A stretch of DNA of 40,170 nt from Gammaproteobacteria bacterium (GTDB lineage: Bacteria > Pseudomonadota > Gammaproteobacteria > Poriferisulfidales > Poriferisulfidaceae), in contig JAPONY010000035.1 in assembly GCA_026713705.1 (NCBI GenBank), positions 1-40,170 of the forward strand. The letters run 5' to 3'. Shown here one piece after another: positions 22,593 through 26,279 of this stretch (position 1 is the first letter of the stretch; each line of letters starts with the position of its first letter). Below the pieces are notes generated by a model that was not told where the DNA came from, did no database searches, and saw only the letters and a list, made by a program, of their open reading frames with translations. The position numbers and the translations under genes were made by a program.

Positions 22593-25500
22593 ATGATGCC
22601 TGACCCAACACCAAAGCAGATAGTCGCAGCCAAGTGGCTTCTTAAGCAATCAGCTGGCCACCCGGAGGATTACATTCGCAAGCGCATAGGTGACCTTTTG
22701 GGGAGCCTCGACATCGACTATGAAATTAGCTACCCTACGGAGTCTGGACCGGCGGACATATACTTGCCCCGTCGGCGGACAATAATTGAAACGAAAGCAC
22801 TTGGATTAGCCGACGACCCCAATAAGCCCCAATCAAGAAAAAACAAGGAGTCGCCGAAAGAACAGCTTGAACGGTATCTTCGTGCCGAAATTTCCCGCGA
22901 GCTCAAATCTACATTGCCCAAGGATACCGAGGATAGGGCATGGACGGGCATCCTCACAGATGGTCGGGTCTGGCATGTCTGGCGTTATGCGCATGAGGAG
23001 AACGCGGTGGGGGTCACGGTGGAGGCTGCATATCGCCCTTCTACTCCACCCACATTAATCGATCGGCTTGAGCACATTCTTAGAGGAAAACTCGTTGGAA
23101 AGCCATGGATTCCTTCGGATCCACGCCCGATTTTTGAACCTCAGTTAGAGCGATTGCGGGAGTTATACGAAAGTTTGCCTAAGCGAGCCGAAAGAGCAAC
23201 AGAAACCAAGCGGCGCTTATGGCTGGAAATGCTCCGCACCTCGAGTATGGAGCCTGATAGTGAGGCAGCACGGCAGCGATTATTTGTTGCTCACTCCTTT
23301 TTGGTTGCACTCGCCCGGGGTGTGATTCATGTTCTTGCGACTCCCGGAAAGAACCCGGAGGCGGAAAATATTCTGGGAGATGGATTCGTTGCTTGGATTG
23401 TCGAAACAACCAAGGGAAAACAGTGGGCGGCAAGCTTTCTTGAGGAGATACAAGGGTACGACTGGCGCCGCCGTCCAGGAGACGTATTGCGTCCGCTTTA
23501 TGAGCAGTTTGTCGACGAACGAGATCGCAAAGCATTTGGTGAGTTTTACACACCAGACTGGCTTGCTGAACTTCTCGTCAGAGAGGTGTGTGATGATGCT
23601 TGGTGCAAAACTGCTATCACGAAGGCACTAGAGGCACGCCGCCAAAGTGTCGATTTGGAAGGTGTAGGTGTTTTGGACCCGACATGCGGCTCAGGAACGT
23701 TCCTCTATCACGCAGCAAGGCGTATCTTGACGTCTCCCACGGTGACAGATCTTACAAATTCGGACAAGGCATCAATTGTCTGTACCCTAGTGCATGGGAT
23801 TGACGTACATCCCATTGCTGCTGAGATCGCCCGTGCCACTCTTCTACGTGCCTTGCCCACGGAGCCTCCACATGGAAAATCAGATCTGCGCATCCATGAA
23901 GGGGATGCGCTGCTGATTCACGGAGATGACGAGAGCTCGCTTTTCCGGCCGACGAACGGAGAAATCCGCATCTCAACCCCGAAAGGAGCAGAGGTGCTCT
24001 TTCCGCGATCCTTTGTGGAACGCCCAGACTTCTCGGATAACCTCCGACGGCTCGTGCTTTCGGCAGAGAGTGATCGCCCCTTACCTTCAGACATCATTTC
24101 CGCCATCCCAGATTCAGACCAAGAAGCGATCGAGGAATGCCACCGTCGATTTGTAGACATCATCAAAGACGAAGGCGACTCAGTCTGGACTTGGTACATC
24201 CGCAACACCACAGGCCCGCACCGCCTTTCCGAGAAAAAGGTCGACCGCATTGTCGCCAATCCTCCGTGGGTAAAAATGGCGCATGTCCAGTCACAGGGTC
24301 GCAAGCAGGCCGTTAAAGATTTCGCGGCTAGTCCGGATATAGACCTTTGGACTGGGGGCAAACACGCACCACACTTCGATATTGCACAGTTATTTGTCAA
24401 GCGGGCTCGCCAGTTGTACTTGGCTAACCCTAAAAATGATCCGGCAGCATGGCTTGTCAAAAAGGCCGCGCTTAAGGCTGGTAGTTGGGAAAAATTTCGC
24501 CAATGGCATGACACGGTTTGCAAGCAAGCAATTGATTTAGAGGCTCTTAAGCCCTTCGGAGGCGGTGACGCCCGTCGCTGCTGTATTCTGTTTGATGGCC
24601 GAATTTCTAGTGTAAAACCTCGGGAAAAAGACCTCGTGGGGATAATTGAAGGGAAATTACCTCCTCCCTATGCAAGTTTGGATGACATCAACAAACGCTT
24701 GGTGTTCAAGGCTACTGCTTCTCCCGTCCCACGCGAAGCGTCCGAATATATCAACGAAAAAGGGAAAACCCTATTCCGCCAAGGAGCGACGATCACCCCT
24801 CAAGTGCTAGTGGTGTTGAGCAAAGCTGATATGAGTGGCAAACGTAAGTTATGCCGCGTTACTACAATGCGTTCTCAGCACCCACCATGGTCGGGGATTG
24901 ATCCGCAAACGGGTATGGTGCCGTGCGGATGGATTCGAGATCTGATAACCTCCAAGTTAGTGTTACCGTTTGCTCTCTCTCCGGCAGGTATGCATCAAGC
25001 TTTAATCCCCACGAATGATGATGGGAGTCTTGATAAAGCCGCTGTCAAAAATTCTGCATTTTGGAAGTCCCTAAATGAAACCTACGAAGAGAACAAGGGA
25101 GCGGGCACCCATACTCCTGGCGATCTGCTAGCCCGGATCGACTACGGTTCCATATTGAGTAGCCAGTTGAACCTTTCAGGTAGATCAAAAACGATGGTCG
25201 TTTATCCTTCCTCCGGGGATGTTATGCGGGCTTGCCGTACCCGTCCAGGCAGCGTGATCGTGGATGCCACCTTGTACTATTATGTTGCTGTCAATGCATC
25301 TGAGGCAGCCTATCTAGTTGCCCTGCTGAATGCTCCCTGCCTCACCAACGCTTTTGCGCAATCGCGCGAGAGTGGACGTGACTTTCATTTGCACCCTTGG
25401 CGCAAAATTCCACTCCGCAGATACGATGGACGAAATTCCACACATGTCAAACTTGCAAAACTCACTACTCAGGCCGAACGCATGGCTCAAAGGTGGTTTT

Positions 25501-25646
25501 CAAGCCCTTATAATCCATCTAGTCACTTAGGCCAAGTGGCGCTGTCGGAGCGATTGCGAGACCTTTTCCGAAACGAGGGTCTGTTCGCGGAGATTGACCG
25601 GCTTGCACGTAAAATCCTTCCGGATCAAGCTCGATCGATTGATTGA
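22593..25646 (+). CDS. Type IIG-like restriction-modification enzyme (nuclease-methyltransferase fusion)
   Basis: This single 1017-residue protein has the parts of an Eco57I-like type IIG enzyme. An N-terminal PD-(D/E)xK nuclease motif reads D55-IYL and E66-T-K68. A helical linker leads to FGEFYTPDWLAELL (about 313-327). The N6-adenine methyltransferase follows, with SAM motif D362-PTCGSGTF and catalytic N556-PPW. A long C-terminal region (about 600-1017) is probably the target-recognition domain. No separate R, S or BREX gene lies beside it. BREX PglX is an alternative family, but that protein normally lacks this nuclease motif. Base composition is visibly less GC-rich than the flanking housekeeping genes, which fits horizontal gain. 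Start may be ATG 22593 or the adjacent ATG 22596. Recognition sequence cannot be inferred. Confidence 0.85.
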   Translation: MMPDPTPKQIVAAKWLLKQSAGHPEDYIRKRIGDLLGSLDIDYEISYPTESGPADIYLPRRRTIIETKALGLADDPNKPQSRKNKESPKEQLERYLRAEISRELKSTLPKDTEDRAWTGILTDGRVWHVWRYAHEENAVGVTVEAAYRPSTPPTLIDRLEHILRGKLVGKPWIPSDPRPIFEPQLERLRELYESLPKRAERATETKRRLWLEMLRTSSMEPDSEAARQRLFVAHSFLVALARGVIHVLATPGKNPEAENILGDGFVAWIVETTKGKQWAASFLEEIQGYDWRRRPGDVLRPLYEQFVDERDRKAFGEFYTPDWLAELLVREVCDDAWCKTAITKALEARRQSVDLEGVGVLDPTCGSGTFLYHAARRILTSPTVTDLTNSDKASIVCTLVHGIDVHPIAAEIARATLLRALPTEPPHGKSDLRIHEGDALLIHGDDESSLFRPTNGEIRISTPKGAEVLFPRSFVERPDFSDNLRRLVLSAESDRPLPSDIISAIPDSDQEAIEECHRRFVDIIKDEGDSVWTWYIRNTTGPHRLSEKKVDRIVANPPWVKMAHVQSQGRKQAVKDFAASPDIDLWTGGKHAPHFDIAQLFVKRARQLYLANPKNDPAAWLVKKAALKAGSWEKFRQWHDTVCKQAIDLEALKPFGGGDARRCCILFDGRISSVKPREKDLVGIIEGKLPPPYASLDDINKRLVFKATASPVPREASEYINEKGKTLFRQGATITPQVLVVLSKADMSGKRKLCRVTTMRSQHPPWSGIDPQTGMVPCGWIRDLITSKLVLPFALSPAGMHQALIPTNDDGSLDKAAVKNSAFWKSLNETYEENKGAGTHTPGDLLARIDYGSILSSQLNLSGRSKTMVVYPSSGDVMRACRTRPGSVIVDATLYYYVAVNASEAAYLVALLNAPCLTNAFAQSRESGRDFHLHPWRKIPLRRYDGRNSTHVKLAKLTTQAERMAQRWFSSPYNPSSHLGQVALSERLRDLFRNEGLFAEIDRLARKILPDQARSID

Positions 25647-25709: not shown

Positions 25710-25738
25710 TTGACAGCCTCGGGTGGGGGTGCGACAAT
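25710..25738 (+). promoter_or_regulatory. Promoter of the tRNA Gly-Cys-Leu operon
   Basis: A consensus TTGACA (25710-25715), a 17-base spacer and GACAAT (25733-25738) predict initiation near 25745, a few bases before tRNA-Gly. The GC-rich discriminator after the -10 (GCCCTCGCG region) is typical of stable-RNA promoters under stringent control. Confidence 0.7.
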
Positions 25739-25752
25739 TTTGCCCTCGCGGG

Positions 25753-25828
25753 GCGGGAATAGCTCAGTTGGTAGAGCGTAACCTTGCCAAGGTTAAGGTC
25801 GCCGGTTCGAACCCGGTTTCCCGCTCCA
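25753..25828 (+). tRNA. glyW: tRNA-Gly (GCC)
   Basis: A 76-base cloverleaf: acceptor GCGGGAA/TTCCCGC, discriminator T, encoded CCA, anticodon stem-loop ACCTTGCCAAGGT with anticodon GCC, and T-loop GTTCGAAC. It is first in a Gly-Cys-Leu tRNA operon ordered like E. coli glyW-cysT-leuZ. Confidence 0.96.
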
Positions 25829-25941: not shown

Positions 25942-25976
25942 CCCTCTTTCTCCCTTTACACTATGATAGGCGCACT

Positions 25977-26279
25977 GCGGGCGTGGCGGAACCGGTAGAC
26001 GCTGCGGACTTGAGGCCATTGAGTGCTCTTCGGGAAACCGGGGATGCAGAACTGCTCAAATTCGGGGAACCCTGTGAAATGGCGATCCCGAGCCAAGCCC
26101 GGAAGGGAACTTCCGGGAAGGTGTAGAGACTAGACGGGCAGCGCCTAAGGCACGATTGCTAGGGTGAAGGGATAGTCCGGACCACAAACGCCGCGCAAGC
26201 GGCGGCGGCGAAAGCCGTAGCTGGTGCGAAAATCCGCTGGGCTTTGCCCGTGGGGGTTCGAATCCCTCCGCCCGCACCA
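25977..26279 (+). tRNA. leuZ: tRNA-Leu (UAA) interrupted by a group I intron
   Basis: Exon 1 is 25977-26011 and exon 2 is 26229-26279. The spliced product folds as a class II tRNA. The acceptor is GCGGGCG/CGCCCGC with discriminator A and encoded CCA. The anticodon stem is GCGGA/TCCGC around loop CUUAAAA, giving anticodon UAA. The variable arm is GGGC-TTT-GCCC and the T-loop TTCGAAT. The intron sits between U34 and A35. Operon order Gly-Cys-Leu matches E. coli glyW-cysT-leuZ, where leuZ also reads UUA/UUG, which supports the anticodon assignment. Read without splicing, the gene would not give a normal anticodon loop. Confidence 0.93.
26012..26228 (+). ncRNA. Group I self-splicing intron in tRNA-Leu(UAA), IC3-like
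   Basis: The 217-nt intron carries the conserved group I core. P is at 26058-26071 (AAATTCGGGGAACC), Q at 26084-26098 (GATCCCGAGCCAAGC), R around 26121-26140 (GAGACTAGACGG) and S at 26167-26178 (AAGGGATAGTCC). P7 pairs GACUA (26128-26132) with UAGUC (26173-26177). P1 pairs exon ACUU with intron GAGU (26021-26024), with a U-G wobble at the 5' splice site. The intron ends in G (26228). GNRA-capped hairpins are present (CCGGAAG-GGAA-CTTCCGG, GCCGC-GCAA-GCGGC, GGC-GAAA-GCC). Motifs resemble the cyanobacterial tRNA-Leu intron as I remember it. No homing endonuclease frame is present. Confidence 0.92.

What the first reader, a model, noticed from the sequence alone, without database searches (positions are those of the whole stretch)
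25977..26279. Group I intron in tRNA-Leu(UAA) at the cyanobacterial/plastid position in a gammaproteobacterial tRNA operon
The sequence shows a 217-nt insert between U34 and A35 of tRNA-Leu(UAA). It has all four conserved group I elements (P, Q, R, S), a P7 pairing, a U-G wobble at the 5' splice site, a terminal G and GNRA-capped hairpins. This insertion site and the core motifs match the intron of cyanobacterial and plastid tRNA-Leu(UAA). The proteobacterial tRNA introns I know of are in tRNA-Arg(CCU) and tRNA-Ile(CAU). Presence in a glyW-cysT-leuZ type operon raises the question of lateral transfer versus an ancient intron. I cannot say whether this has been catalogued.
Basis: partly seen in the sequence, partly recalled or inferred. 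Interest (0 to 1): 0.8.

Follow-up and report, generated by a model that had tools for sequence, protein, structure and literature searches.

The report
Self-splicing intron in a sponge-symbiont tRNA
The only gene in a sponge-associated sulfur bacterium that can make the tRNA reading the codon UUA is split by a self-cutting RNA insert of a well-known type, and the whole split gene looks borrowed from an alphaproteobacterium-like donor rather than from cyanobacteria.

Summary
Window 25977-26279 is a tRNA-Leu(UAA) gene split by a 217-nt group I intron (26012-26228) between U34 and A35, third gene of a gly-cys-leu tRNA operon. It folds as a complete small tRNA-type (IC3-like) group I intron, with strong covariation. 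It is the only tRNA-Leu(UAA) found in this MAG. The same split gene occurs in four other genomes of the genus, Candidatus Porisulfidus (sulfur-oxidising Gammaproteobacteria); the fifth, 76% complete, gave no match.

The insertion site is shared with cyanobacteria, but the intron groups with alphaproteobacterial and acidobacterial tRNA-Leu introns. It is clearly different from the tRNA-Leu introns of most other Gammaproteobacteria; placement with cyanobacteria is disfavoured but not formally rejected. The exons are also alpha-like, while intron-free sister families keep a native gene in the same operon. Replacement of the whole gene by a foreign intron-bearing allele is the best explanation.

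tRNA-Leu(UAA) introns are common outside cyanobacteria, and putative ones were already reported in gammaproteobacterial Beggiatoaceae. This is a new member of a known kind, with an interesting lateral-transfer history. Splicing itself was not tested.

The parts
25710..25738 (+). candidate sigma-70 promoter (TTGACA-17-GACAAT with TG before the second hexamer), 14 bases upstream of tRNA-Gly
   Evidence: consensus scan, 10 of 12 matches, 0.1 expected in shuffles; a match is not proof of function
25753..25828 (+). tRNA-Gly(GCC), first gene of the operon
   Evidence: ARAGORN, Rfam RF00005 71.4 bits
25868..25941 (+). tRNA-Cys(GCA), second gene of the operon
   Evidence: ARAGORN, Rfam RF00005 60.7 bits
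25977..26011 (+). 5' exon of tRNA-Leu(UAA), ends at U34
   Evidence: ARAGORN with introns
26012..26228 (+). 217-nt group I intron, ends in the terminal G
   Evidence: ARAGORN boundaries; RF00028 match 26002-26205; covariation
26009..26023 (+). P1: exon CUU 26009-26011 with guide sequence GAG 26021-26023, U.G at the 5' splice site
   Evidence: the U.G pair is kept in 56 of 56 sequences
26024..26048 (+). P2 hairpin with GAAA loop
   Evidence: 8 of 10 pairs show changes on both sides
26052..26141 (+). P3: 26052-26057 with 26136-26141, enclosing the P4-P6 domain and the 5' strand of P7
   Evidence: 100% of cells paired, 3 pairs with changes on both sides
26062..26122 (+). P4-P6 domain: P4 26062-26067 with 26086-26091, short P5, P6, P6a hairpin 26098-26117 with GGAA loop
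   Evidence: P4 100% and P6a 89.6% of cells paired, 7 of 8 P6a pairs with changes on both sides; the P5 pairing as drawn is weak (63%)
26128..26177 (+). P7, guanosine-binding helix: 26128-26132 (GACUA) with 26173-26177 (UAGUC), crossing P3
   Evidence: invariant in this group; across the wider family its distal pair is A-U, C-G, U-A or G-C, Watson-Crick in 153 of 153
26142..26166 (+). P8: 26142-26145 with 26163-26166, inner helix 26149-26151 with 26158-26160
   Evidence: P8 100% of cells paired; changes on both sides in both helices
26181..26225 (+). P9.0 (26181-26184 with 26222-26225) and the two P9 hairpins with GCAA and GAAA loops
   Evidence: 3 of 4, 5 of 6 and 4 of 5 pairs with changes on both sides
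26229..26279 (+). 3' exon of tRNA-Leu(UAA), from A35 to the encoded CCA
   Evidence: ARAGORN

Best explanation
This is a group I (IC3-like) self-splicing intron in the anticodon loop of the only tRNA-Leu(UAA) gene found. After transcription of the gly-cys-leu operon the intron folds (P3-P9 core, guanosine pocket in P7), holds the 5' splice site in P1 by a U.G pair, is attacked there by guanosine, and in the second step the freed 3' OH of U34 attacks after the terminal G, joining U34 to A35. The anticodon stem pairs across the intron and holds the exons together. Anatomy, homology and covariation are shown; catalysis and splicing are inferred from the family. The gene is best read as a foreign allele: exons and intron together replaced the native gammaproteobacterial tRNA-Leu(UAA) at its place in the operon, from an alphaproteobacterium or another bacterium carrying that allele class, before the sampled Porisulfidus species separated.
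For: Intact tRNA and exact boundaries once the insert is removed. Full-length RF00028 match. Covariation and Watson-Crick swaps in P7. All 142 tRNA-Leu introns parsed have U before and G at the end of the intron (the junction finder looked for this exon form, so exon U is partly built in). No other tRNA-Leu(UAA) found, while UUA codons occur in the window's genes (28 in 7625 codons), so mature tRNA must be made. Lateral origin: Porisulfidus introns fall in the alpha/acido/beta group (99/96 branch) and union with the common gammaproteobacterial tRNA-Leu introns is rejected (AU p 0.008). Intron identity 187/208 to an alphaproteobacterium, 155/193 to the best common-gamma type, 154/198 to the best cyanobacterium. 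Exons outside the anticodon arm: 62 of 69 to the best alpha, 49-54 to intact sisters of the order, at most 51 to other gamma-class intron-bearing genes. In sister families an intact native gene follows Gly-Cys or Cys (L234, L245). In 369 class genomes only Porisulfidus carries the A-U core at this gene.
Against: No RNA or splicing data. The RF00028 score is below the curated cut-off. The branch joining Porisulfidus to a particular alpha is weak, and Acidobacteria score nearly as well (61 of 69 exon positions), so the donor class is not fixed. Placing Porisulfidus with cyanobacteria costs 16.8 log-likelihood units but is not rejected by the AU test (p 0.24, long cyanobacterial branch).
Confidence: 0.93

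Rival explanations
1. Vertical or ancient intron: the intron has been in gammaproteobacterial tRNA-Leu(UAA) since an early ancestor and was lost in the sister families.
For: tRNA-Leu(UAA) introns occur in many gammaproteobacterial families, often in the same operon.
Against: Those introns form a separate group with a different P7 pair (U-A) and native exons; union with Porisulfidus is rejected (AU p 0.008). Intron-free sisters carry native exons that differ from Porisulfidus exons well outside the intron's reach.
Confidence: 0.06
2. Intron-only transfer: an alpha-type intron homed into the native gammaproteobacterial gene at the same site.
For: Group I introns are known to move alone between intronless alleles (established knowledge); tRNA-Ile, tRNA-Arg and tRNA-Leu introns are related.
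Against: No endonuclease gene in 217 nt. Acceptor, D, variable and T arms are alpha-like too (62 of 69 against 49-54), which intron-only transfer does not predict.
Confidence: 0.1
3. Direct descent from, or transfer from, the cyanobacterial/plastid tRNA-Leu(UAA) intron, as the first reader suggested as a possibility.
For: Same gene, same site, similar architecture; the AU test does not reject union with cyanobacteria (p 0.24).
Against: Cyanobacterial introns form one long-branched clade (100/99) with another P7 pair; intron identity to them (154/198) is far below that to alphas (187/208).
Confidence: 0.04
4. Dead gene: the intron no longer splices and the tRNA is supplied by an unassembled copy.
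For: The MAG is in 98 contigs and 95.6% complete.
Against: The same arrangement is kept in four further genomes, one of them a single 1.59-Mb contig, none with an intact copy by pattern search; exons and all core helices are intact and conserved.
Confidence: 0.03

Closest known systems
Alphaproteobacterial tRNA-Leu(UAA) group I introns (e.g. Caulobacter L204, Sphingomonas L156 and L138, Brevundimonas; loci)
   Same: Host tRNA, insertion site, A-U distal P7 pair, core sequence (187/208 identical to L204), and alpha-like exons (77/85 to L156)
   Different: In Porisulfidus the gene sits in a gammaproteobacterial gly-cys-leu operon. I found no paper that describes this alphaproteobacterial group, but the library held is partial
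Putative group I introns in tRNA-Leu-TAA of Beggiatoa (BOGUAY) and Ca. Thiomargarita nelsonii (PMC4853749, citing MacGregor 2013a)
   Same: Gammaproteobacteria, same interrupted tRNA, reported as putative group I introns
   Different: Their sequences were not compared here; whether they are of the common gamma type or the Porisulfidus type is not known
Common gammaproteobacterial tRNA-Leu(UAA) introns (L056, L062, L064, L079-L081, L085, L087, L088)
   Same: Host tRNA, site and often the Cys-Leu operon
   Different: U-A distal P7 pair in most, native exons, separate clade; union rejected
Cyanobacterial/plastid tRNA-Leu(UAA) intron (Anabaena type)
   Same: Host tRNA and U34/A35 site, IC3-like architecture
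   Different: C-G distal P7 pair, long-branched separate clade, lower identity
Azoarcus-type tRNA-Ile(CAU) and Agrobacterium/Bartonella-type tRNA-Arg(CCU) introns
   Same: Same intron class and a similar core; the Bartonella bacilliformis tRNA-Arg(CCU) intron self-splices in vitro and splices in vivo (PMC7717549)
   Different: Other host tRNAs and insertion sites

Membership tests
Group I introns (Rfam RF00028) | covariance-model match over the whole catalytic core | tested here: inconclusive
   End-to-end match, 43.8 bits, E 4.1e-10, but below the curated 50-bit threshold
Group I introns (Rfam RF00028) | P3-P8 and P4-P6 domains with the P3/P7 pseudoknot | tested here: met
   Structure drawn; 93.4% of cells paired, 39 pairs with changes on both sides, 0 of 500 shuffles as high
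Group I introns (Rfam RF00028) | P7 guanosine-binding helix | tested here: met
   GACUA/UAGUC; all four Watson-Crick forms of the distal pair across the family, 153 of 153 paired
[quoted passage not shown]
   U.G in 56 of 56; terminal G in 142 of 142 parsed tRNA-Leu introns
Group I introns (Rfam RF00028) | splicing by guanosine-initiated transesterification | not testable with these tools
   Needs RNA; inferred from the family
Subgroup IC3 (bacterial/plastid tRNA introns) | small size, anticodon-loop host, short P5, GNRA-capped P2 and P9 | tested here: met
   217 nt, U34/A35, GAAA loop in P2, GCAA and GAAA loops in P9. Subgroup criteria are from general knowledge; no subgroup model was available
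Cyanobacterial/plastid tRNA-Leu(UAA) intron lineage | same insertion site | tested here: met
   U34/A35
Cyanobacterial/plastid tRNA-Leu(UAA) intron lineage | phylogenetic placement with cyanobacterial introns | tested here: inconclusive
   Free tree places it elsewhere (99/96 branch), AU test of the union p 0.24
Alpha-type tRNA-Leu(UAA) allele | intron within the alpha/acido/beta group | tested here: met
   99/96 branch; nearest rows alphaproteobacterial
Alpha-type tRNA-Leu(UAA) allele | exons outside the anticodon arm closer to alpha than to native gamma | tested here: met
   62 of 69 against 49-54 (intact sisters of the order) and at most 51 (other gamma-class intron-bearing genes)

The most novel reading that the evidence does not exclude
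A bacterium swapped its sole UUA-reading tRNA gene, in place within an operon, for a foreign intron-bearing allele from another class, so that decoding of UUA now depends on a horizontally acquired ribozyme. Tahibacter aquaticus may be a second, independent case.
Probability: 0.65. Interest if true: 0.45.

Novelty: new member of a known kind. Interest (0 to 1): 0.3.

Why it matters
It shows that tRNA-Leu(UAA) group I introns are not a cyanobacterial/plastid speciality and that their shared insertion site alone does not prove shared recent descent. The locus offers a clean test of how an essential tRNA gene and its intron move together between bacterial classes. It also explains why standard tRNA scans report this tRNA as missing in such genomes.

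Tried and rejected
The class-wide RF00028 survey with strict filters missed the window's own intron, so its counts are lower bounds and patterns were used instead. ARAGORN mis-set junctions in several genes: the many 'tRNA-Gln(CUG)' calls (e.g. L036) are better read as tRNA-Ile(CAU), and 'Phe' or 'Ser' calls in L095, L096, L103-L106 and L108 as tRNA-Leu(UAA); a custom junction finder was used for Leu. The P5 pairing as drawn is weakly supported. The pattern for intact tRNA-Leu(UAA) found it in 260 of 369 class genomes, but absence there does not mean an intron, so no prevalence was derived. Contamination by an alphaproteobacterial contig was rejected: the operon and neighbouring genes are shared with four other Porisulfidus genomes. 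Taxonomy look-up does not hold the genus name. Papers on alphaproteobacterial tRNA-Leu introns: none found. Paquin 1999 and Rudi 2002 are not held.

Full report
What is there. Window 25977-26279 is a tRNA-Leu(UAA) gene with a 217-nt insert at 26012-26228, between U34 and A35. ARAGORN finds it only when introns are allowed. It is the third gene of an operon with tRNA-Gly(GCC) and tRNA-Cys(GCA), with a good sigma-70-like site at 25710-25738. Rfam's group I model matches the insert over its full length at 43.8 bits, E 4.1e-10, a little under the curated 50-bit threshold. It is the only such match in the genome.

Organism. The genome is a 1.94-Mb MAG, 95.6% complete, in 98 contigs. Genomes G015 and G019, which the tool calls the same genus, have contigs of the same lengths as records titled Candidatus Porisulfidus (MRSX01000001.1, 153662 bases, and OY288106.1, 1593361 bases). 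One paper uses Ca. Porisulfidus as outgroup to the SUP05 sulfur-oxidising Gammaproteobacteria. The name TsSOB and 'sponge' in the record title point to a sponge-associated sulfur oxidiser. The genus assignment of the window rests on this link.

Structure. I drew P1-P9 by hand on the window sequence and counted pairs on 56 related tRNA-Leu introns (alignment A1). Of all pair cells 93.4% are standard pairs against 84.4% after shuffling, 39 pairs have changes on both sides against 22.8, and no shuffle of 500 reaches any measure. Sliding the partners drops pairing to 31-43%. P3, P4, P7 and the outer P8 helix are paired in every sequence. P7 does not vary inside this group, but across all introns collected its distal pair is A-U (109), C-G (30), U-A (11) or G-C (3), always Watson-Crick. 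U.G at the 5' splice site is invariant and every tRNA-Leu intron parsed ends in G. The structure was drawn from one of the sequences, which favours it on cells paired; the changes on both sides are the stronger evidence.

How it works. By established knowledge of group I introns: guanosine bound in P7 attacks after U34, and the freed U34 then attacks after the terminal G, joining U34 to A35. The anticodon stem, GCGGA with UCCGC, holds the exons. A related tRNA-Arg(CCU) intron of Bartonella bacilliformis self-splices in vitro and splices in vivo (PMC7717549). For the window this is inference; no splicing data were available.

Need for splicing. The other leucine tRNAs found are CAA, UAG, CAG and GAG, and no intact tRNA-Leu(UAA) was found in any of the six genomes of the genus by pattern. 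UUA codons are used, 28 in 7625 codons of twelve window ORFs. So the split gene should be essential.

Distribution. Four of five further genomes of the genus carry the same gene, operon and intron; the fifth is 76% complete. In the other families of the order none of 14 genomes has a group I match, and 11 of the 14 gave an intact tRNA-Leu(UAA) on reading the pattern hits; it directly follows Gly-Cys in L234 and Cys in L245 and L244. Elsewhere in the class (which in GTDB also holds the former Betaproteobacteria) tRNA-Leu(UAA) introns occur in a number of families, often behind tRNA-Cys.

Kinship. In a 176-row tree (quick) and an 82-row tree (careful) the Porisulfidus introns are one clade inside an alpha/acido/beta group; that group's branch has 99/96 support in the careful tree. 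The common gammaproteobacterial tRNA-Leu introns form another group; forcing Porisulfidus with them is rejected (AU p 0.008). Forcing it with cyanobacteria costs 16.8 log units but is not rejected (p 0.24); the cyanobacterial branch is very long. Best intron identities are 187/208 (Caulobacter L204), 155/193 (common gamma) and 154/198 (cyanobacteria).

Whole gene or intron alone. Outside the anticodon arm, 69 exon positions are free of the intron's direct demands. The window matches the best alphaproteobacterium at 62, Acidobacteria at up to 61, intact sisters of the order at 49 (three) and 54 (one), and other gamma-class intron-bearing genes at no more than 51. Intron and exons therefore tell one story: an alpha-type allele replaced the native gene at its operon place. 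Recombination of whole tRNA-Leu loci is already known in cyanobacteria, by title of Rudi, Fossheim and Jakobsen 2002 (cited in PMC3984707; text not held). The donor class cannot be fixed further. Tahibacter aquaticus (L225), another gammaproteobacterium, also carries the alpha-like type, so this may have happened more than once.

Literature. A 2014 review lists bacterial tRNA introns in cyanobacteria, alpha- and betaproteobacteria only (PMC4033280). tRNAscan-SE 2.0 notes that such introns are not detected by design and hide tRNAs (PMC8450103). A 2016 paper on Ca. Thiomargarita nelsonii states that tRNA-Leu-TAA is interrupted by a putative group I intron there and in a Guaymas Beggiatoa (PMC4853749). 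The headline of the finding is therefore not new for Gammaproteobacteria. The library is partial, so further reports may exist.

Verdict. A real, complete, almost certainly functional group I intron; a new member of a known kind. The interest lies in the apparent whole-gene replacement, not in the intron's presence.

Noticed in passing
window 22593-25646: Large N6-methylase / Eco57I-like gene directly upstream of the tRNA operon; in the flanks held for relatives it matches only L033 (75%), so it may be a variable insert next to the tRNA genes.
   Followed up: partly
window 25942-25976: Conserved ACTATGATAGG block just upstream of tRNA-Leu in all five Porisulfidus genomes, resembling a -10 element (TATGAT); tRNA-Leu may have its own promoter. 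Tahibacter L225 has a similar CTATAGT.
   Followed up: no
L225 (Tahibacter aquaticus): A second gammaproteobacterium with an alpha-like tRNA-Leu(UAA) intron, downstream of Gly-Cys-Gly tRNA genes; possibly an independent transfer.
   Followed up: partly
L213 (JASHOB010000070.1, alphaproteobacterial MAG): Similar intron apparently in tRNA-Leu(CAA): the base before the 5' splice site is C, giving C-G instead of the usual U.G pair.
   Followed up: no
L162 (titled Tatlockia MAG): Cyanobacterial-type tRNA-Leu and intron in a record titled as Legionellaceae; likely a misbinned cyanobacterial contig.
   Followed up: no
L244 (G013, same order): Intact tRNA-Leu(UAA) next to tRNA-Cys with exons unlike both the native gamma and the Porisulfidus type, hinting at repeated replacement of this gene in the order.
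   Followed up: no
L180 (Myxacorys almedinensis, cyanobacterium): tRNA-Leu(UAA) intron that groups with the gamma/acidobacterial type rather than with other cyanobacteria.
   Followed up: no
L036, L037, L039 and similar loci: Many gamma-class introns called tRNA-Gln(CUG) by ARAGORN look like tRNA-Ile(CAU) introns with a shifted junction; automatic host assignment of tRNA introns is unreliable.
   Followed up: partly
L208 (Acidobacteriota MAG): tRNA-Leu(UAA) intron of 681 nt, much longer than the others; content not examined.
   Followed up: no
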